This document shows, in pieces, positions 115 to 15,395 of a DNA stretch of 37,044 nucleotides (position 1 is the stretch's first letter; the number at the start of each line of letters is the position of its first letter). A program made the position numbers and the translations under genes. Origin of the DNA: Clostridia bacterium (GTDB lineage Bacteria > Bacillota > Clostridia > Oscillospirales > Acutalibacteraceae); assembly GCA_017474125.1 (NCBI GenBank), contig JAFVIF010000007.1:1-37044 (forward strand), in the 5' to 3' direction. Under the pieces are notes generated by a model. It was given only the letters and a program-made list of their open reading frames with translations. It was not told the DNA's origin and searched no databases.

Positions 115-438
115 ATGTCAACAGAATTTGCAATTCAAATATTGAAGCTGACCGATAACATCAAGGGACACTATTCCTTATCTAATCAGCTTGAAAGAAG
201 CGGCACGAGTATCGGAGCAAATATCCGTGAAGCGAAATACGCGCACAGCCGTCCCGATTTTATCGCTAAATTGCAGATTGCCTTAAAAGAGTGCTACGAA
301 ACAGAATACTGGATTGAAATCGCACAAAAAGCGAGCATTATCTCTGATGATGTCGCAAAAACTGTATTGCACGATTGCGGATCGATTCGCAGAATGCTCA
401 TCTCCTCCATCAACACCGCAAAGGAGAACACGAAATGA
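115..438 (+). CDS. Four-helix-bundle protein (S23 / 23S rRNA intervening-sequence family)
   Basis: This 107-residue all-helical protein carries the family signature: LERSGTSIGANIREA around residues 26-40, then DFIAKLQIALKECYETEYW around 48-66. The family is named after proteins encoded in 23S rRNA intervening sequences and also includes the Avd accessory proteins of diversity-generating retroelements. Most members have no known activity. The first ATG (115) corresponds to a position several residues inside the usual family N-terminus. The codons just before it (NRLAD) still look like family sequence, yet a TAA at 94-96 blocks any longer ATG start, and there is no clear ribosome site before 115. 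The gene may therefore be slightly N-truncated, or translated by coupling to the upstream gene. It overlaps the NUDIX gene by 4 bases (ATGA). No reverse transcriptase or template repeat is visible, so a retroelement role is not supported. Confidence 0.8.
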   Translation: MSTEFAIQILKLTDNIKGHYSLSNQLERSGTSIGANIREAKYAHSRPDFIAKLQIALKECYETEYWIEIAQKASIISDDVAKTVLHDCGSIRRMLISSINTAKENTK

Positions 439-851
439 TAACAGAAAAATCCTGCGGTGCCATTGTTTACAAATGCGAGAACAGTACAATAAAATATGTA
501 ATTATCCGTTCCAATGAAGGAATATACGGATTCCCTAAAGGTCATATAGAAGGAACAGAAAGTGAAACAGAAACCGCTTTACGCGAAATCTCAGAGGAAA
601 CAGGCTTGACTGTCCGGTTGATCGACGGTTTTAGAACTGAGGATACGCACAGCTTTATGCGTAATGGTGAAGCAAGGTTGAAGCATATAGTATACTTTTT
701 AGCTGAATATTCCGACCAAGTACCAACTGCACAGGAGGCAGAGTTAAGTAGTGTGCATTTAATGGATTATGAAACTGCTATATCAGTGTTTCAGTTCGAG
801 AGTTCAAAAAGGCTGCTGACTGAAGCTCACAATTTTCTGATGCGACAGTAG
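435..851 (+). CDS. NUDIX hydrolase (diadenosine-polyphosphate type)
   Basis: This 138-residue protein has a perfect NUDIX box, G-x5-E-x7-RE-I-x-EE-x-GL, running from residue 38 (GHIEGTE) to about residue 60 (SEETGL). The box binds Mg2+ and hydrolyses a nucleoside diphosphate linked to another group. Small size and the GFPKGHIE lead-in resemble bis(5'-nucleosyl)-tetraphosphatases, but the substrate cannot be fixed from sequence. I chose the ATG at 435 because AAGGAG lies 8 bases upstream and because the protein then begins directly with the NUDIX beta strand. A longer in-frame start at 375 would run inside the preceding gene. The 4-base overlap with the four-helix-bundle gene implies translational coupling. 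Confidence 0.88.
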   Translation: MITEKSCGAIVYKCENSTIKYVIIRSNEGIYGFPKGHIEGTESETETALREISEETGLTVRLIDGFRTEDTHSFMRNGEARLKHIVYFLAEYSDQVPTAQEAELSSVHLMDYETAISVFQFESSKRLLTEAHNFLMRQ

Positions 852-1456: not shown

Positions 1457-1586
1457 TACAATCATTGTTAAATTGTATGAATATAAACCTTTTTTTATTC
1501 GCTGATTATTCGTGTTTGCTTATGGCGTGCAGAGTACAATATTGTTGAAAAAAACTGTTTTTTATGATACTATACAATATATTGTA
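1457..1586. promoter_or_regulatory. Cluster of TACAAT / ATTGTA palindromes (candidate operators)
   Basis: Three related dyads lie within 130 bases: TACAAT-CA-TTGTTA at 1457-1470 (imperfect), ACAATATTGT at 1536-1545 (perfect 10-mer), and TACAATATATTGTA at 1573-1586 (perfect 14-mer). The second abuts the -35 element and the third overlaps the end of the -10 and the expected start site of the promoter at 1545-1573. This is the geometry of a repressor operator set. A cognate regulator is not identified. The XRE protein at 7263-8153 is one local candidate. Confidence 0.55.
1545..1573 (+). promoter_or_regulatory. Sigma-A-type promoter of the TIR-SecA gene
   Basis: TTGAAA (1545-1550), a 17-base spacer and TACTAT (1568-1573) preceded by TGA, giving an extended -10. 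Transcription would begin near 1580, so the ATG at 1564 cannot be the start codon. The GTG at 1621 then has a leader of about 40 bases. Confidence 0.6.
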
Positions 1587-1620
1587 CAGTAAAATGAAAA
1601 ACCGAAGGAGAAAAGGAAAA

Positions 1621-4600
1621 GTGGAAGCTTTTGTAAGTTGGACGGGTGCAGACCGAGACGTAAAAAATGCATTGGTGGAAAAATTGCAGGAGGCAGGTAT
1701 TAACTGCTGGGATTCTGATGAAAATTGTGTTTCCGATTTTTCTTCCGAGTGTATTGAAGCCATAAAATGCTGCGAGGTTTTTATCGTTATAATCAGTGAA
1801 AGTTCAATGAAAAAGGGGTACGTAAAAAACGAGGTTATTACCGCGCGAGCTCTTGAGGATGAAGGAAAGCTTAATATTTTGGTATATAAAATTACCGATA
1901 AGCCATATACAAGCGGGTTTGAGTTTTTAATCAATCACGTTTCCTTTGCATTCGGAAATTTAATAGAAAGAAAAGAATCCTTTGTTGAGGAAAGCGGCAT
2001 TGACACCGTTGTAAAAAGAGCAACCATTCTTTTGCAAAAGAGAAGAGAGGGCAATCCGGAAAAGCCCTTCGACGTTAATATTCCGCAAATTGACGGACTG
2101 AAAATTGCCAAAACCGGCTTTTTTGTAGAAAACAGCCGAAACGAGATTTTGGAAAGCATTGACCAAAAGCTTAGGGAAAACAACGTTATTATTCTTAAGG
2201 AGCTTTTTGGTTTCGGTAAAAAAAGCACCATAAAAAAGTTTGCCGAGCTGCACAGCTACGAAAACGTTGTTGTAGTTGACAACGAAACAAACGGTTTGAG
2301 AGATTTTATACTGTCAGAGCTTGAATTTCGAAACGTTAACCAAAAGGTGTTTGAAGCTTTAGAGGGTAACGAGCTTATTAAGGAAAAATTCCGCCTGCTT
2401 CAAAAGTTGGATGAAAAAAATCTGTTAATTGTTCCCGATGTGAAATTTGAAGCGGCTCCCGATGAATTTATTTGTCAAAATTTATTATCTTTAAGCTGTA
2501 AAATTGTACTTATTACGCAGGAGGAGGCAGGAGGTTATTCCGAATATTTCCCTGTAATTAATTTGGGAAGAATGAAGGACGAGCATCTTTTAGAGCTTTT
2601 TTATCATTACTACCCCTATGCTTATGAAGAAGACAAGGAGCTTCTTTATCCGCATTTAATCAATTTCTTTTCCGGAATCGGCGGTCACACCAAAACAATC
2701 GAGCTTACGGCGTCGGTTTTATCGCGTGAAATGGGTGTTCATCCCGAAGAAATACCGCAGTATCTTTCCTTGCGCGGCAATGAAGGAATGCAGCTAAAGG
2801 ACAAAATAATGAGCCAAATTTCATACCTGTTCAGTATGGAAAGCCTGAGTGAGGAGGAAATCAAGATTTTATTGGTTGCCTCTTATATTGCCGTGCCCAG
2901 AATATCGGAGGGTAATTTTCGCAAGGCTCTTAAAAGCTGTGGTATTAATGACTGGTCCCTCGTAATGAAGCTTGATAAGCTTCGTTGGTTAGACGTGGAT
3001 ATTATGTCACGAAGCGTAAGCGTAGAGCCTCTTATTGCTAAAATTGTTACGAGCACCTATCCCGAAAATTACTTTATTATATATAATTGCCTCAGCGTCG
3101 TATTGGAAAACGTAGCCAAAATTTGTGTAAACAGCCATACCTATTCAAAGCTTTGCTGCAGTATTGAGACGGCGTTAAACAATATGGGCTTCTGCGAGGC
3201 GGCGCAGATTATTGCTGTTTTAAGACAGTATTCCAACGACAAAGAAAATTTTGATTTAGATATAATAAAGCAGGCCTTGGCCAACTATGAAAGTAAGTAT
3301 TCCACGGAATACTGCTCCGAAGCTGTTGAGGATATGGTTTCTGAGGACGATTATACCCTTTGCTTGTGTGAAGAGTATATTAAAACTGCCATGACCGCCT
3401 TTATCACCTTAACAAAGCTGGTGGCAAGCAACGTGGAAACGGAATTGCTTTATAATTTTTCGCAAGAAAGCCAGAGTATGTTTCTGAGCGGCGTCGGAAG
3501 CGGAGAACGGTTTTTTGATATTGAGCAGCTTCTGGGCCTTTCCAAAGAGGACCTTTACGGATTTCTTGAAACCTTTCGCGCCGAAAAGGAGCAAGAGGGA
3601 GGCTTCGATGAAGAGGATGAGGAATCCTATTTATTATTGCAGGCTTTGGCGGCAACGGATGCTTTTTACAATCGTGATATTGCTGAATTTATGCGGATTT
3701 TTGAGTCTATGAACGACCTTATCGACCAAGCTCCGATTTTTGAAAACGACGATAACGAGGTCTTCGTTTACAGCATTTATTTTATTGTGGCAACAATATA
3801 TATGAATATGAAGGCGTACCGTTCGGTAATAAGCCTTTGCGAGAGAGTGATGAAACGTGCGAGGCTGCCTCTTGTCAGGACCTTTATTCTGAACGCGTAT
3901 ATTGAAGCGTTGCAGCATTTAAACGAATACGGTGAAAAGCTGTACGCTTCCTATGAAGAAGTTTTAAAGTGTTTTAACGAAACCTCGGGAGATGCCTTTG
4001 AGAGCCGAGATGAAGCTAATGCTGAGAAAAAAATACGAGTTTTGAATTATGCAAGGGATTTGGCTAAGGGCGAGCAAGGCGAGAGGGCGGTTTATTGGTT
4101 TAAAGAGGCGCAGAAGCTGGGCAAAATGCATCAGCCCACACAAACGGTCAGAACGGCTAAAAAAATTGCGGAGCTTCTTTTTGCGACCTGCGACTTTAGC
4201 GTTGTTACCGAGTTTATAAACACATATTTTTCTTGTGAATATATAGAGGCGTTAAGAGCTGTCGTGGATGAATATGACGGCGCAACGCTTGACGAATTTA
4301 CGGCGTATAAAAAAATGATGGATACGAAGGGAGAAGAAGGGGCAGAGGAAGACGAAACAAGATATATAAGCTATTATCATCAATATTCGCGCGAAAACAA
4401 CAGCCTACAGGAAAGGGCCTACCGTTCGGTTGCCGAAAGGGTGTCGGCCTTCGATTTCAGTCAGCTTACAAACGCGGAAATAAAGGAGCACGCTTTATCG
4501 CTTAAAGCGAGAGCAAAAAGAGAAAAGCTTTTGGCCTTGGCCAGTGAATGCTTTGCGCTTGCAAGCGAGGCGGGCTTCAGGGTTTTGGGATATAGGCATC

Positions 4601-6816
4601 ATTACGTTCAGTATATGGGCGCCGCGGCTATGGCCGACGGTAAGGTTGCCGAAATTTTAAACGGAGAAGGCAAAACCTATACTATCGTTCTTGTGGCGTT
4701 TTTAAACTATATTTTCGGCCGTAAGGTTTTTGTGCTTGACAGCTCACCCTTCCTTACAAAACGTAACCATGAATGGATGCACGGTGTATACAGCCTTTTA
4801 GGTATGAGCAGTGAGCATATTGAATATTTTGAGCAGTTTTATAAAAGAAACGGAAAGCAGCAGGCTGACGTTACCTATATTACGGTAAGACAATTAATAT
4901 TCGGACAGCTTGAAAGCGAATTGGAGGTTGATTTCAAGAGGGAGGATATGAAGCTCGGCTGTGCAATTATAGATGAAATAGACAGCGTTATTGTTGATGA
5001 GGCCGTCAGACCCTACGATTTGGTTAAGAATACGGGTGATAGCACTGTTGTAGAAATTTGTGAAATTGCGTACCGCCTTGCACAGGAGCTTGCGTTTGAT
5101 GAAGATTGCTATTCGTATGAATCGAAAAGGATCGATTTAAAGCAGGGTGTATGCAGGTATATTGAAAGGGCCTTCGGAGTTTCCTATGATTCGCCTGCCG
5201 ACATTGAAAAAATCGGCAAGATAGAGGAGGCTCTGACGGTTGCGCTTCTTTGCTGTAACCATTTTGAAAGAGGTGTTGATTACCACCTTCAAAAGGGAGT
5301 ACCCGTATATGAAAATACACAAAACGGTATCTTTGCGGATTTTTCGCCGATGTACGAGTACTTTTTGGCAAGGCTTAACGATTTAAGCGTTTCGCGAGCT
5401 CAAAAGGAGCTTTCAACAGGTCGTACTGTACTTAATTCTACCTGTGTAAAGGATTTAATTAACAGATTTGACCGAGTTTGCGGAACTACGGCTACGGCGG
5501 CAAGCTTTAAGAAAGAGTTTAAAGAAATTTACGATTTGGATTACGTAGCAATACCGCCCTTTGCTCCCTGCATAAGAGAAAATTTGCAGTCCCCCGTATT
5601 TATGAACGAGGAAGCCAAGAAGGCGGCCATTCTTGAAACGGTTGTTGAAAAGCACCAAAAGGGGCAGCCCATACTTATAATTACTCAAACTGTTGAAGAA
5701 TCGGAGGAATATTCACGGCGTCTTAAGGCGGTTGGTATTGAACACAAGGTGCTTAACGCAAAAAACAGTGACGATTCAACCGATATAATTGCTCTTTCGG
5801 GCGAAATGAATTCCGTTCTTGTTGCAACCTTTATAATTAATCGCGGTACTGACATTAAATTGGGCGGCAATGCTGAGATTAAAACGAGAAGAGAGCTTGT
5901 AAATATGGGTGTTGACGTAACGGGACTTGAGGAGCTTATTTATGCCGTTCCCACCGAGGAACAGAAGGAATCTCCGCTTTACAAAAAATACTATGCTCTT
6001 CTTGAGAAAAACAGGCTTTTGGTTGAAATGGAAAAGGAGAAGGTTGTTGCTTCGGGCGGTCTTTGTGTTATAGGCACCAGCTTTTTCTTGGAGCTGAGAA
6101 CCGAACAACAAACCCGAGGCAGAAGCGGAAGACAGGGTGAGGTTGGCGAAAGCATTGTTTTCCGTTCCATAGAGGATGGAATTATACGCCGTTCCATAGG
6201 TGAGGGCTTTGTTGAAAGATTGCAAAGTATGGCAACCGATGATATGGCGATACATTCAAATATTTTAAATAAGGCTTTACAGAATTTGCGTCAAAGAATC
6301 CACGATAAGCATTTTTCGGATATCAGAGCAAAAAATAAGCGTTCCGCCTTTATAGATGCAGGCAGAAGAAGCTTTCTTGAAGTAAAGAACGAGCTTTACG
6401 AAGGAAAGGCGACCGTTGTAGACATAATTCACCAATGGTCGCAAAACGAATCGGTTAAAAAAGAAATTCTTCTTTTCCAAAAAGGCATTAAAAACAATCA
6501 AAGGTTAGCTCTTTACAAATTATATTTGCGGCATAAGGATAGGCTTTCGGCGGCAAAGGGCATTAATTTGGAACGAAGACTTTTTGATGCTTTTATGAGT
6601 GAAACCGAGGAGCTTTTTGCTAAAGAAGGCGACAATAAAGAAATTATGATTGTTCATTTCCTTTTAAAGGAAGGGTTTGAAAGGTATATTGAAACTGTGG
6701 ACAAAACTCTTAAAAACGTTGAAGCCTCCGACCGTTCCCTTGAACGTTTTTTCCGACAGGAGAGAAACCGCTTATTTGCTTCTTCTGTTGAAAGATTGCT
6801 GAAAATGAAGGCTTAG
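1621..6816 (+). CDS. Giant TIR - NB-ARC/STAND-like NTPase - helical - SecA-motor fusion protein
   Basis: About 1731 residues from the GTG at 1621, which has AAGGAG 10 bases upstream. Numbering uses that start. Residues 1-135 are a TIR domain: FVSWTGAD near the start, and SESSMKKGYVKNEV with Glu71 in the position of the NAD-hydrolase catalytic Glu. Residues about 155-480 resemble NB-ARC plus winged helix: a degenerate P-loop GFGKKST (197-203), a Walker-B-like LLIVPD (268-273), and LSEEEIKILL at 409. Residues 480-925 are alpha-helical and possibly TPR-like. Residues 926-1731 are a SecA homologue of near-normal length. It has LGYRHHYVQYMG, Walker A GEGKT (1015-1019), DEID (1118-1121), GTTATA (1288-1293), RGTD (1408-1411), QQTRGRSGRQG (1496-1506) and a helical-scaffold-like segment. 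The SecA zinc tail is absent. It has its own promoter and terminator. Function is unknown; an NLR-like immune role is inferred. Confidence 0.9.
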   Translation: MEAFVSWTGADRDVKNALVEKLQEAGINCWDSDENCVSDFSSECIEAIKCCEVFIVIISESSMKKGYVKNEVITARALEDEGKLNILVYKITDKPYTSGFEFLINHVSFAFGNLIERKESFVEESGIDTVVKRATILLQKRREGNPEKPFDVNIPQIDGLKIAKTGFFVENSRNEILESIDQKLRENNVIILKELFGFGKKSTIKKFAELHSYENVVVVDNETNGLRDFILSELEFRNVNQKVFEALEGNELIKEKFRLLQKLDEKNLLIVPDVKFEAAPDEFICQNLLSLSCKIVLITQEEAGGYSEYFPVINLGRMKDEHLLELFYHYYPYAYEEDKELLYPHLINFFSGIGGHTKTIELTASVLSREMGVHPEEIPQYLSLRGNEGMQLKDKIMSQISYLFSMESLSEEEIKILLVASYIAVPRISEGNFRKALKSCGINDWSLVMKLDKLRWLDVDIMSRSVSVEPLIAKIVTSTYPENYFIIYNCLSVVLENVAKICVNSHTYSKLCCSIETALNNMGFCEAAQIIAVLRQYSNDKENFDLDIIKQALANYESKYSTEYCSEAVEDMVSEDDYTLCLCEEYIKTAMTAFITLTKLVASNVETELLYNFSQESQSMFLSGVGSGERFFDIEQLLGLSKEDLYGFLETFRAEKEQEGGFDEEDEESYLLLQALAATDAFYNRDIAEFMRIFESMNDLIDQAPIFENDDNEVFVYSIYFIVATIYMNMKAYRSVISLCERVMKRARLPLVRTFILNAYIEALQHLNEYGEKLYASYEEVLKCFNETSGDAFESRDEANAEKKIRVLNYARDLAKGEQGERAVYWFKEAQKLGKMHQPTQTVRTAKKIAELLFATCDFSVVTEFINTYFSCEYIEALRAVVDEYDGATLDEFTAYKKMMDTKGEEGAEEDETRYISYYHQYSRENNSLQERAYRSVAERVSAFDFSQLTNAEIKEHALSLKARAKREKLLALASECFALASEAGFRVLGYRHHYVQYMGAAAMADGKVAEILNGEGKTYTIVLVAFLNYIFGRKVFVLDSSPFLTKRNHEWMHGVYSLLGMSSEHIEYFEQFYKRNGKQQADVTYITVRQLIFGQLESELEVDFKREDMKLGCAIIDEIDSVIVDEAVRPYDLVKNTGDSTVVEICEIAYRLAQELAFDEDCYSYESKRIDLKQGVCRYIERAFGVSYDSPADIEKIGKIEEALTVALLCCNHFERGVDYHLQKGVPVYENTQNGIFADFSPMYEYFLARLNDLSVSRAQKELSTGRTVLNSTCVKDLINRFDRVCGTTATAASFKKEFKEIYDLDYVAIPPFAPCIRENLQSPVFMNEEAKKAAILETVVEKHQKGQPILIITQTVEESEEYSRRLKAVGIEHKVLNAKNSDDSTDIIALSGEMNSVLVATFIINRGTDIKLGGNAEIKTRRELVNMGVDVTGLEELIYAVPTEEQKESPLYKKYYALLEKNRLLVEMEKEKVVASGGLCVIGTSFFLELRTEQQTRGRSGRQGEVGESIVFRSIEDGIIRRSIGEGFVERLQSMATDDMAIHSNILNKALQNLRQRIHDKHFSDIRAKNKRSAFIDAGRRSFLEVKNELYEGKATVVDIIHQWSQNESVKKEILLFQKGIKNNQRLALYKLYLRHKDRLSAAKGINLERRLFDAFMSETEELFAKEGDNKEIMIVHFLLKEGFERYIETVDKTLKNVEASDRSLERFFRQERNRLFASSVERLLKMKA

Positions 6817-6900: not shown

Positions 6901-6937
6901 AAAAGATGCACGAAAATTTCGTGCATCTTTTATTTTT
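6901..6937 (+). terminator. Intrinsic terminator after the TIR-SecA gene
   Basis: AAAAGATGCACG and CGTGCATCTTTT pair around a short A/T loop and are followed by ATTTTT, 85 bases after the stop codon. It closes a one-gene transcription unit. Confidence 0.8.
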
Positions 6938-9586: not shown

Positions 9587-10282
9587 TTAATCTGTTTTGT
9601 CATATATACGCTTTTGAATGCTTTCCATTTTTTTGTCCAGCGTTGCCGCTGCCTCGGCGCATTCCCTTAATTCCGCTGCAATGCCGTCGGTAACGGTTAC
9701 GTCCTTTTTGTATCGTATTTTATGTTCAAGGCTTGCCCACCAGTCCATGGAAATCGTTCTAAACTGTACTTCAACCCGCATATGCTTTTTCTCGTCGTGG
9801 AGAAAAATGGGGATTTCGACAATAAGGTGCAGACTTCTGTAGCCGTTTTCCTTGGGATTTTCAATATAATCCTTTCTGGCGATAAGGGTAATATCGTCCT
9901 GACGTAAAAAGGCATCGGCAAGTGTGTAAATATCCGACGGGAAGCCGCAAATTACCCTGACGCCTGCAACGTCGTTAAGGTTTTGCTCAATGCTTTGGAC
10001 GGTAATGGGCAGGTTTAGGTTGCTGAGCTTATCGCCTATGCTTTCCACCGACTTAAGACGGGTTTTAATGGTTTCGATGGGGTTGCGGTCGTATTCCAGC
10101 GACAGTTCCTCGCTAAGCACGCGGAATTTGGTTTCAACCTCCATCATAGCGCATTTATAGTAGGACATAAGCTCCTTAAAGGGGGCAACGTTGGTGCTTA
10201 CCCAGTTTTTGATTTCGGATTTGGGCAGGGGGAGGGCGGAAAAAAGGCGTGCCCAATATTCCTTGGTGTCAAATTGTTCCAT
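9587..10282 (-). CDS. Small alarmone synthetase, GTP pyrophosphokinase family (RelQ/RelP-like)
   Basis: At 231 residues this is the length of a stand-alone RelA/SpoT synthetase domain without the hydrolase, TGS and ACT domains of long RSH proteins. It would transfer pyrophosphate from ATP to GDP or GTP, making (p)ppGpp. Visible motifs are the substrate-binding region IKTRLKSVESIGDKL (72-86), NDVAGVR with Asp104 in the metal-binding position, YIENPKENGYRSLH (139-152, GTP-binding tyrosine) and VEVQFRT followed by MDWWASLEHKIRYK (170-192). The ATG has an ideal ribosome site (AAGGAG, 6 bases). Its promoter lies at 10332-10360 in the region shared with pckA. RelQ versus RelP cannot be settled by eye. 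Confidence 0.9.
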   Translation of the reverse strand: MEQFDTKEYWARLFSALPLPKSEIKNWVSTNVAPFKELMSYYKCAMMEVETKFRVLSEELSLEYDRNPIETIKTRLKSVESIGDKLSNLNLPITVQSIEQNLNDVAGVRVICGFPSDIYTLADAFLRQDDITLIARKDYIENPKENGYRSLHLIVEIPIFLHDEKKHMRVEVQFRTISMDWWASLEHKIRYKKDVTVTDGIAAELRECAEAAATLDKKMESIQKRIYDKTD

Positions 10283-14573: not shown

Positions 14574-15395
14574 TTAATTTAACATACCTTTATATATATC
14601 GCCTTTTTTAAGGCCTGTGATTTCAGCCGCCTTTTTTGCCGCAACAGAAGGGGCGTCGCCCTCCTCGCAGAACTGTTTTGCAAGGAGTATTGCCTCATCG
14701 GGGGTGTAAACACGTTCTTCTGCTTCTGCTCCCGTAACGATTATTACAAATTCGCCCTTGGGAGGGGTTTCGGTATATTTTTCAATAGCGGCGGAAAGGG
14801 TGGTATGGATAACCTCCTCGTGAATTTTGGTGAGCTCCCTGACAAGGGCAATAGCTCTGTCTCCGAAGGTGTTCAGCATATCCTTCAGGGTGTTAAGCAG
14901 CTTGTGGGGGGCTTCGTAAAATATCATGGTTCGTTTTTCGGTTTTTAATTCGCTTAAGTGAGCGCGTCTGCCCGGCTTATTCATTGTAAGGAAGCCCTCA
15001 AAGGTAAATCTGCCGCTTGGCATTCCCGAAACGGCAAGGGCGGTTATTACGGCGCTGGGGCCAGGAACCGATTCAACGGCAATACCGTTTTCATAGGCAA
15101 GCCTTACCATATCCTCTCCGGGGTCGGAAATAGCAGGCATACCCGCATCGGTAACAAGGGCACAGCTTTCTCCGTTTAACAGTCGGGTAATAATTTCGCC
15201 GCCGCGCTCCTTTTTGTTATGCTCGTAATAAGAAAGCATAGGCTTTTTTATGCCTAAATGATTGAGCAGCTTTACGGTTACCCTTGTATCCTCGGCGGCA
15301 ATAAAGTCTACCTCGGTAAGGGTTTTGGCTGCTCTCGGAGATAAATCGCCTAAATTTCCTATGGGAGTTCCCACTAAATAAAGCTTTCCGCTCAT
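14574..15395 (-). CDS. rsmI: 16S rRNA (cytidine(1402)-2'-O)-methyltransferase RsmI
   Basis: This 273-residue SAM-dependent enzyme 2'-O-methylates C1402 in the ribosomal decoding centre. The tetrapyrrole-methylase fold motifs are clear: LYLVGTPIGNLGDLSPRA at the start (residues 5-22), AAEDTR (33-38), LVTDAGMPAISDPG (80-93) and VPGPSA (109-114). Length is typical. The protein is complete, including the small C-terminal domain with SVAAKKAAEITGLKKGDIY. It is monocistronic on the minus strand. The promoter is at 15433-15461, and the gene is divergent from the lipoprotein gene at 15541. Confidence 0.95.
   Translation of the reverse strand: MSGKLYLVGTPIGNLGDLSPRAAKTLTEVDFIAAEDTRVTVKLLNHLGIKKPMLSYYEHNKKERGGEIITRLLNGESCALVTDAGMPAISDPGEDMVRLAYENGIAVESVPGPSAVITALAVSGMPSGRFTFEGFLTMNKPGRRAHLSELKTEKRTMIFYEAPHKLLNTLKDMLNTFGDRAIALVRELTKIHEEVIHTTLSAAIEKYTETPPKGEFVIIVTGAEAEERVYTPDEAILLAKQFCEEGDAPSVAAKKAAEITGLKKGDIYKGMLN

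What the first reader, a model, noticed from the sequence alone, without database searches (positions are those of the whole stretch)
1621..6816. A single protein joins TIR, NLR-like NTPase, helical region and a SecA motor
The sequence shows an N-terminal TIR domain with a Glu in the NADase position, an NB-ARC-like module, about 450 helical residues and an ~800-residue SecA homologue with its DEAD-motor motifs intact. In known bacterial STAND/NLR immune proteins the order is effector, NTPase, sensor. Here a SecA takes the sensor place. Inference: it could be a SecA decoy that detects phage or toxin attack on protein export, in the manner of plant NLR integrated decoys, or a motor whose stalled state triggers NAD depletion. 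I know of no characterised system with this architecture.
Basis: partly seen in the sequence, partly recalled or inferred. Interest (0 to 1): 0.93.

Follow-up and report, generated by a model that had tools for sequence, protein, structure and literature searches.

The report
Immune-like receptor with SecA motor
A bacterium carries one giant protein that joins an immune-type domain of the NAD-cutting kind, a worn-out NLR-type switch and an intact-looking motor derived from the protein-export ATPase SecA, and the same rare combination is kept in related bacteria, which suggests a defence receptor run by a borrowed motor.

Summary
One uninterrupted gene (likely start GTG 1621, stop 6816) encodes a 1731-residue protein: TIR domain, NB-ARC-like module, about 445 poorly characterised residues, SecA-derived ATPase. 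It is no artefact: eight genomes (Clostridia where titled) carry the same single-ORF architecture, the seven relatives 30-44% identical, each with a separate ordinary SecA elsewhere. In 8 of 8 the TIR Glu71 and the SecA motor motifs are kept while the NB-ARC nucleotide motifs are broken (GK[T/S] to GKK/GKR/GRK, sensor Arg to Gln); related NB-ARC-TPR proteins keep them. The SecA part is no copy of host SecA (23-28% identity) and has lost its clamp and two-helix-finger signatures, and in seven of eight its tail. Best reading: a STAND/NLR-like NADase receptor whose own NTPase is dead and whose ATP-driven part is a SecA-derived motor; trigger unknown. The decoy idea is weakened, not excluded. Defence is inferred: one of six loci scanned has other TIR genes beside it; no phage or plasmid relative was found. 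A NACHT-TPR-SecA protein was noted in print in 2015 (Treponema), so this is a new variant of a known kind.

The parts
1621..6816 (+). whole gene, GTG start, 1731 aa: TIR / NB-ARC-like / middle region / SecA-derived motor
   Evidence: open frame; start by alignment to relatives
1545..1573 (+). promoter-like site TTGAAA-17-TACTAT with TG before the second hexamer; weak evidence only
   Evidence: 14 sites found in the stretch, 11.5 expected
1605..1610 (+). AAGGAG, ribosome-binding-like sequence 10 nt before GTG 1621
   Evidence: read directly from sequence
1621..2055 (+). TIR domain (residues 1-145; Pfam TIR_2 4-92)
   Evidence: profile matches Cat1 (E 2.6e-4), SNC1, RPS4 and other TIR structures more weakly
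1831..1833 (+). codon of Glu71, the presumed NADase glutamate, in Y67-x-x-N70-E71
   Evidence: invariant in 8 of 8; HMMER aligns it with a Glu of Cat1 and of SNC1; that these are the catalytic ones is recalled
2068..3060 (+). NB-ARC-like (STAND) module, residues 150-480, nucleotide motifs degenerate
   Evidence: hhalign 99.9% to eight bacterial NB-ARC sequences; motifs
2206..2226 (+). degenerate P-loop FGFGKKS (residues 196-202)
   Evidence: GK[ST] missing in 8 of 8
3061..4395 (+). fast-evolving middle region (residues 481-925), perhaps helical, TPR-like only in a short part
   Evidence: 13-28% identity to the window in seven relatives; designed-TPR match E 0.0028
4396..6813 (+). SecA-derived ATPase module (residues 926-1731)
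   Evidence: SecA_DEAD and P-loop_SecA; PDB SecA E 7.5e-74
4660..4680 (+). SecA Walker A NGEGKTY (residues 1014-1020)
   Evidence: invariant in 8 of 8
4969..4983 (+). SecA DEAD-type motif IDEID (residues 1117-1121)
   Evidence: DE.D in 8 of 8
5842..5868 (+). SecA motif V RGTDIKLGG (residues 1408-1416)
   Evidence: RG.DI in 8 of 8
6118..6138 (+). SecA motif VI GRSGRQG (residues 1500-1506)
   Evidence: GR..RQG in 8 of 8
6901..6931 (+). terminator-like hairpin, 14 pairs, T-rich tail; suggests a one-gene transcript
   Evidence: 9 such sites found in the stretch, 6.3 expected; this is the longest stem

Best explanation
A stand-alone STAND/NLR-like receptor that kills or arrests its own cell by NAD+ cleavage. 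Shown: a TIR domain with Glu in the catalytic position, an NB-ARC-like module without intact nucleotide motifs, a variable middle region and a SecA-derived module with its ATPase motifs, in one conserved protein. Inferred: the inactive NB-ARC module serves as scaffold and relay, not as switch; ATP binding and hydrolysis by the SecA-derived motor sets the resting or armed state; engagement of the variable middle plus the remodelled SecA clamp by an intruder's or damaged polypeptide changes the motor's state; this lets TIR domains come together and cleave NAD+, as abortive infection. The trigger is not known.
For: Same single-ORF architecture in 8 genomes. TIR Y67/N70/E71 and SecA NGEGKTY, DE.D, RG.DI, GR..RQG kept in 8 of 8; NB-ARC GK[ST] lost and sensor Arg replaced by Gln in 8 of 8; eight P-loops of related NB-ARC-TPR proteins intact. 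NB-ARC homology 99.9%. Median identity over 28 pairs: TIR 55%, NB-ARC-like 45%, middle 20%, SecA 37%, SecA NBD core 50%: conserved effector, platform and motor, variable middle. Fusion SecA modules are more diverged than the host SecAs in 21 of 21 pairs of seven genomes. Rare: 2 of 300, 2 of 394 and 1 of 391 genomes at family, order and class level, own included. TIR profile matches TIR structures, best Cat1 E 2.6e-4. Precedent for an N-terminal TIR on an inactive STAND that works with a separate active ATPase: iSTAND/MoxR systems (PMC7159879 passages).
Against: No experiment. PADLOC gives no defence family for it beyond weak Cas3-helicase matches; the eighth member adds only weak matches through its tail. 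Neighbours are mostly housekeeping-type genes; of six fusion loci with some neighbours scanned against PADLOC (window, L014, L020-L023) one has other TIR proteins, and three window neighbours match candidate models that I read as generic domains: HTH (best E 5.2e-12), Nudix (PDC-S07, 6.1e-07), RelA/SpoT-type (PDC-S33, 5.9e-23). No relatives of residues 1-925 in plasmids; none in viral contigs by peptide patterns; in phage records only partial matches to the SecA module. ATP hydrolysis, NADase activity, oligomerisation and the fold of the middle region are untested; no model could be made. Some TIRs are scaffolds rather than enzymes (PMC8494770, listing).
Confidence: 0.5

Rival explanations
1. 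Integrated SecA decoy: the SecA part imitates the export motor, and a phage or toxin factor that attacks SecA is caught and sets off the TIR.
For: SecA sits in the sensor position; the nucleotide-binding domains are partly SecA-like: 37 of 73 near-invariant NBD2 columns kept in at least 6 of 7; host SecA present as a separate gene in 8 of 8 genomes; one member keeps the SEC-C tail.
Against: Only 23.4-28.1% identity to 38 canonical SecAs; 99 of 253 near-invariant SecA columns absent in 7 of 7; clamp region (PPXD) 5 of 37, HSD/HWD/two-helix finger 2 of 28, tail 0 of 6 kept. A decoy need not keep ATPase motifs (inference).
Confidence: 0.15
2. Not immune: a signalling or quality-control ATPase, in which a SecA-derived unfoldase or export motor handles proteins and TIR/NB-ARC regulates it or signals envelope or secretion stress.
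For: Chromosomal single genes, in the window among housekeeping genes, no mobile-element link found, intact motor motifs.
Against: Rare and patchy, fast divergence, loss of channel- and substrate-contact signatures, conserved TIR Glu.
Confidence: 0.25
3. The TIR makes a signal nucleotide for an unlinked effector, or is a protein-binding scaffold, rather than depleting NAD.
For: TIRs that make cADPR isomers exist (PMC10022894, search listing and start of abstract only). The own genome holds one further TIR_2 match elsewhere, a possible partner.
Against: No recognised effector among six window neighbours scanned; terminator-like hairpin after the gene.
Confidence: 0.1

Closest known systems
Secondary SecA with NACHT and TPR domains of Treponema azotonutricium ZAS-9 (Kamneva 2015, PMC4452313; abstract, section 14 and passages read)
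   Same: STAND-type NTPase, helical repeats and SecA_DEAD in one protein, beside a normal SecA
   Different: NACHT, not NB-ARC-like; retains SecA_SW; no N-terminal TIR mentioned in what I read; one protein in another phylum; state of its NTPase motifs not described; its sequence was not compared here
Bacterial TIR-NB-ARC-TPR and kinase-NB-ARC-TPR STAND proteins (e.g. L066, L064, L015; L063, L008)
   Same: N-terminal effector, homologous NB-ARC module, found in genomes of the same class
   Different: intact NB-ARC motifs, TPR C-terminus, no SecA
iSTAND-MoxR-vWA ternary conflict systems (PMC7159879, passages read)
   Same: inactive STAND module with N-terminal effectors such as TIR, and a separate active NTPase
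   Different: there the active ATPase is an AAA+ MoxR on another protein with a vWA partner; here it is a SecA-derived motor in cis
Canonical SecA and SecA2
   Same: ATPase core NBD1-NBD2 with Walker A, DEAD, motifs V and VI
   Different: below every NCBIfam SecA and SecA2 cut-off listed; clamp, two-helix-finger and mostly tail signatures lost
Plant TIR-NLRs with integrated domains (recalled; titles and abstract starts)
   Same: TIR, NB-ARC and a foreign domain in one receptor
   Different: the added domain here is an active-looking motor, and the NB-ARC switch is degenerate

Membership tests
STAND/NLR immune receptor (TIR-NB-ARC type) | N-terminal TIR with Glu in the catalytic position | tested here: met
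   TIR_2 in 7 of 7 (E at most 0.1, best 1.5e-12) and in the eighth just over the cut-off (28.4 against 28 bits); E71 in 8 of 8
STAND/NLR immune receptor (TIR-NB-ARC type) | NB-ARC homology | tested here: met
   hhalign 99.9%, 304 columns, against eight NB-ARC sequences; no direct Pfam NB-ARC hit
STAND/NLR immune receptor (TIR-NB-ARC type) | intact nucleotide motifs (GK[ST], hhhhD, sensor Arg) | tested here: not met
   GK[ST] and sensor Arg absent in 8 of 8; Walker B acid D in 6, N in 1, E in 1
STAND/NLR immune receptor (TIR-NB-ARC type) | C-terminal repeat sensor | tested here: inconclusive
   weak, short TPR match only
STAND/NLR immune receptor (TIR-NB-ARC type) | anti-phage or cell-death activity | not testable with these tools
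   needs experiment
SecA preprotein translocase | DEAD-motor ATPase motifs | tested here: met
   8 of 8
SecA preprotein translocase | score above the curated SecA cut-off | tested here: not met
   TIGR00963 350.5 bits, cut-off 800
SecA preprotein translocase | substrate-clamp (TGR), two-helix-finger (GLRAYGQ.DP; motif names recalled) and C-tail signatures | tested here: not met
   not intact in any of 7 aligned nor, for the first two, in L088; SEC-C tail only in L088
SecA2 accessory translocase | score above a curated SecA2 cut-off | tested here: not met
   best 304.9 bits, cut-off 725
iSTAND ternary conflict system | inactive STAND with N-terminal effector | tested here: met
   inactive by motif only; membership of the published iSTAND sequence family was not tested
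iSTAND ternary conflict system | MoxR and vWA partner genes alongside | tested here: inconclusive
   none among 16 window proteins given to Pfam, but not every window ORF was scanned; a MoxR-type gene stands 2.3 kb after the fusion in L021 (by eye)

The most novel reading that the evidence does not exclude
An NLR whose switch has changed hands: the NB-ARC NTPase has died and become a scaffold, and a protein-translocase motor has taken over as the ATP-driven sensor, so that gripping or failing to move a polypeptide is what releases the TIR NADase. This would be a mechanical, motor-gated immune receptor.
Probability: 0.3. Interest if true: 0.92.

Novelty: new variant of a known kind. Interest (0 to 1): 0.78.

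Why it matters
STAND/NLR receptors are thought to be switched by their own nucleotide-binding module. A conserved family in which that module looks dead while a SecA-derived motor stays intact would show that the switch can be handed to another ATPase, and that the protein-export motor has been recruited into what looks like immunity. It makes testable whether an immune receptor can sense by pulling on, or being stalled by, a polypeptide.

Tried and rejected
Rejected: two genes behind a hidden frameshift, or a misassembly (single ORFs in eight genomes). Rejected: SecA2 or ordinary SecA with an N-terminal addition (cut-offs; separate canonical SecA in all eight genomes). Weakened: faithful SecA decoy.

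Led nowhere: genome-contig scan with the single protein (14 pattern matches, no relative); viral contigs (pattern matches, no relative; peptide patterns can miss relatives); plasmids, residues 1-925 only (none); phage records, SecA module only (23 records, none covering 80% of the query; of 15 listed, three are annotated as SecA and twelve carry no annotation). Class-wide SecA-module scan: 282 of 391 genomes matched; apart from the own fusion the listed matches had frames of 802-1014 aa, but at most two candidates per genome were scored and further matches were not listed, so other SecA fusions could be missed. PDB search with the NB-ARC-like profile (only a chance-level match). TPR signature scan of the middle region (no window in 5 of 8, one each in 3, shuffled means 0.04-0.12) and hhalign against TPRs of relatives (1.7%). 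The tree of 45 SecA modules puts the seven fusions on one side of a branch (SH-aLRT 100), but with long branches and odd composition in five, so their origin within SecA is not resolved. Distances between fusions and between host SecAs correlate moderately (r 0.56, Mantel p 0.03), which fits partly shared descent with the host. Literature: ten searches; PMC5062602 passages list SecA and NACHT as separate domain types of phage WO, no fusion in what I saw.

Rows left out: the SecA column counts and host-pair distances use seven fusions; the eighth (L088) was found later and enters, there one residue short of its end. The P-loop comparison scanned nine loci; a strict pattern matched eight P-loops in seven of them; L017 did not match although one search shows GIAGIGKS there, and L018 did not match and was not looked at further.

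Full report
Setting. Genes downstream are of the chromosomal housekeeping kind: PEP carboxykinase, PrmC-type methyltransferase, radical-SAM/TRAM protein, Cys-type and class-II (D/K/N) tRNA synthetases, an RsmI-like gene (by eye). The gene lies 1.6 kb from the contig start, after a four-helix-bundle gene, a Nudix gene and a SpoIIID-type gene, and before an HTH regulator, an alpha/beta hydrolase and a RelA/SpoT-type gene.

The observation. The frame is open from 1564 to 6816. A 14-pair hairpin with a T-rich tail at 6901-6931 suggests a one-gene transcript. Pfam finds TIR_2 (residues 4-92), SecA_DEAD (926-1301) and P-loop_SecA (1316-1538). The PDB sequence matches are SecAs (24 listed, best E 7.5e-74). 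NCBIfam SecA models match far below their cut-offs (350.5 bits against 800; best SecA2 304.9 against 725). The own genome has a separate SecA of ordinary size on C27; a third, sub-threshold match is a RecG-like helicase by eye.

A family. Family-level search: 3 of 300 genomes, namely the own, the full-length relative G289, and G270, whose protein is kinase-NB-ARC-TPR. Order-level search: 7 of 394 genomes, namely the own, the full-length G315, and five that match the NB-ARC part only. A peptide-pattern scan of 84,980 species genomes (number from the tool's description) gave five full-length relatives, L019-L023, titled Oscillospiraceae (three) or Clostridia (two); two titles name water buffalo cecum and yak colon. 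L022 has the contig length and the protein of G289. Relatives of G1030: 4 of 169; of G1031: 3 of 166; of G315: 1 of 166; these added one new member, G1216/L088. A class-level search with the NB-ARC+middle profile matched 8 of 391 genomes, of which only the own is full-length. That makes eight distinct genomes, each with one ORF, 1728-1803 aa from the aligned start, the seven relatives 30-44% identical to the window protein, and each with one canonical SecA frame of 913-935 aa besides.

What is kept and lost. In 8 of 8: TIR Y67, N70 and E71; SecA Walker A NGEGKTY, DE.D, RG.DI and GR..RQG. HMMER aligns Glu71 with a Glu of the Cat1 and SNC1 TIR domains; that these are the catalytic ones is recalled. 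The NB-ARC module is clearly homologous to bacterial NB-ARC (hhalign 99.9%, 304 columns; of six such relatives scanned, five carry Pfam NB-ARC), and one relative, L066, matches the plant TIR-NLR Roq1 over TIR and NB-ARC (E 2.3e-4). But the fusions read GKK or GKR (7) or GRK (1) where GK[ST] is expected, Gln in place of the sensor Arg (8 of 8), and D (6), N (1) or E (1) at the Walker B acid. Eight P-loops from seven relative loci keep G.GG.GK[ST] and TTR. That the fusions' NB-ARC no longer hydrolyses nucleotide is inference; residual binding is not excluded.

The SecA part. Against 38 canonical SecAs, 253 columns are near-invariant; 79 are kept in at least 6 of 7 fusions and 99 are absent in 7 of 7. 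By region, kept/total: N-term 0/7, NBD1a 18/38, NBD1b 8/39, PPXD 5/37, NBD1c 9/25, NBD2 37/73, HSD/HWD/two-helix finger 2/28, C-tail 0/6 (region borders set by me from recalled SecA anatomy). Identity to canonical SecA is 23.4-28.1%, among fusions 30.2-50.9%, among the matching host SecAs 54.0-75.3%; the fusion value is the lower in 21 of 21 host pairs. One member, L088, ends in a SEC-C motif like the SecA tail. So the module derives from SecA, kept the motor motifs and gave up most signatures of preprotein export.

Domain tempo. Median identity over 28 pairs: TIR 55%, NB-ARC-like 45%, middle 20%, SecA 37%, SecA NBD core 50%. A conserved effector, platform and motor with a variable middle is what a receptor would show, but fast change alone does not prove immunity.

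Context. PADLOC scans of some neighbours at six of eight fusion loci (window, L014, L020-L023): two TIR-TPR proteins beside the fusion in L020, and in the window matches of an HTH gene (best E 5.2e-12), the Nudix gene (PDC-S07, 6.1e-07) and the RelA/SpoT-type gene (PDC-S33, 5.9e-23), which I read as generic domains but which are candidate-defence models. Plasmids: none for residues 1-925; viral contigs: none by peptide patterns; phage records: 23 with partial SecA-module matches, three of the 15 listed annotated as SecA, the rest unannotated. This speaks against a gene that moves on mobile elements, though not against a chromosomal defence gene.

Mechanism. From the literature seen: inactive STAND versions (iSTAND) in conflict systems carry N-terminal TIR and other effectors and occur with a separate AAA+ MoxR (PMC7159879 passages); eroded STANDs beside active ones also occur (PMC8195603 passages). 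DUF4062 TIR-like NADases act in phage defence (PMC13174449 abstract, section 8 and passages). I propose that here the SecA-derived motor plays the active-NTPase part in cis: its nucleotide state, altered by a bound polypeptide, is relayed through the middle region and the dead NB-ARC scaffold to the TIR. Shown: parts, motif states, conservation. Inferred: NADase activity, ATP hydrolysis, sensing, oligomerisation, defence.

Known or new. A second SecA with TPR and NACHT domains in Treponema azotonutricium ZAS-9 was reported in 2015, with the remark that a DUF4062/NACHT/TPR protein is encoded in the same genome (PMC4452313 section 14). I found no report of TIR-NB-ARC-SecA in ten searches of the held library; most papers of subscription journals are not in it. 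Hence: new variant of a known kind.

Noticed in passing
L022:15509-16192 and L020:17373-18059; L017:7255-8228: A sigma-K-like sporulation sigma factor gene (by eye) lies next to, or about 2 kb after, the fusion in two of eight loci, and a sigma-K-like gene split over two frames lies about 0.5 kb from an NB-ARC STAND gene in L017; in the window the neighbour is a SpoIIID-type gene. Possibly an insertion hotspot.
   Followed up: no
L020:739-9925: Before the fusion: ADP-ribosylglycohydrolase, two tandem TIR-TPR proteins of 896 and 844 aa, and a BspA-type leucine-rich-repeat protein.
   Followed up: partly
L088:3644-8944: The most divergent fusion keeps a C-terminal SEC-C zinc motif (PF02810, E 2.5e-7), a relic of the SecA tail; its NB-ARC P-loop reads GFGRKS.
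   Followed up: yes
L008:395-10945: G270's kinase-NB-ARC-TPR protein lies about 4 kb from a type I restriction enzyme-like gene.
   Followed up: no
window 14574-15395 and L023:15535-16401: An RsmI-like gene (by eye) lies 7.8 kb after the fusion in the window and directly after it in L023, a hint at a shared ancestral position.
   Followed up: no
L021:17519-21523: MoxR-type ATPase, DUF58-type and transglutaminase-type genes (by eye) about 2.3 kb after the fusion; MoxR is the active partner in iSTAND systems, but this trio is common in bacteria (recalled).
   Followed up: no
G000:C72:3631-3921: The own genome holds one further TIR_2 match (41.6 bits) in a 442-aa frame.
   Followed up: no
window 9587-10282: The RelA/SpoT-type gene near the fusion matches the PADLOC candidate model PDC-S33 (E 5.9e-23) and GTP diphosphokinase models below their cut-offs.
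   Followed up: no
window 115-851: A 23S-rRNA-intervening-sequence-type four-helix protein gene and a Nudix gene sit at the very start of the contig.
   Followed up: no
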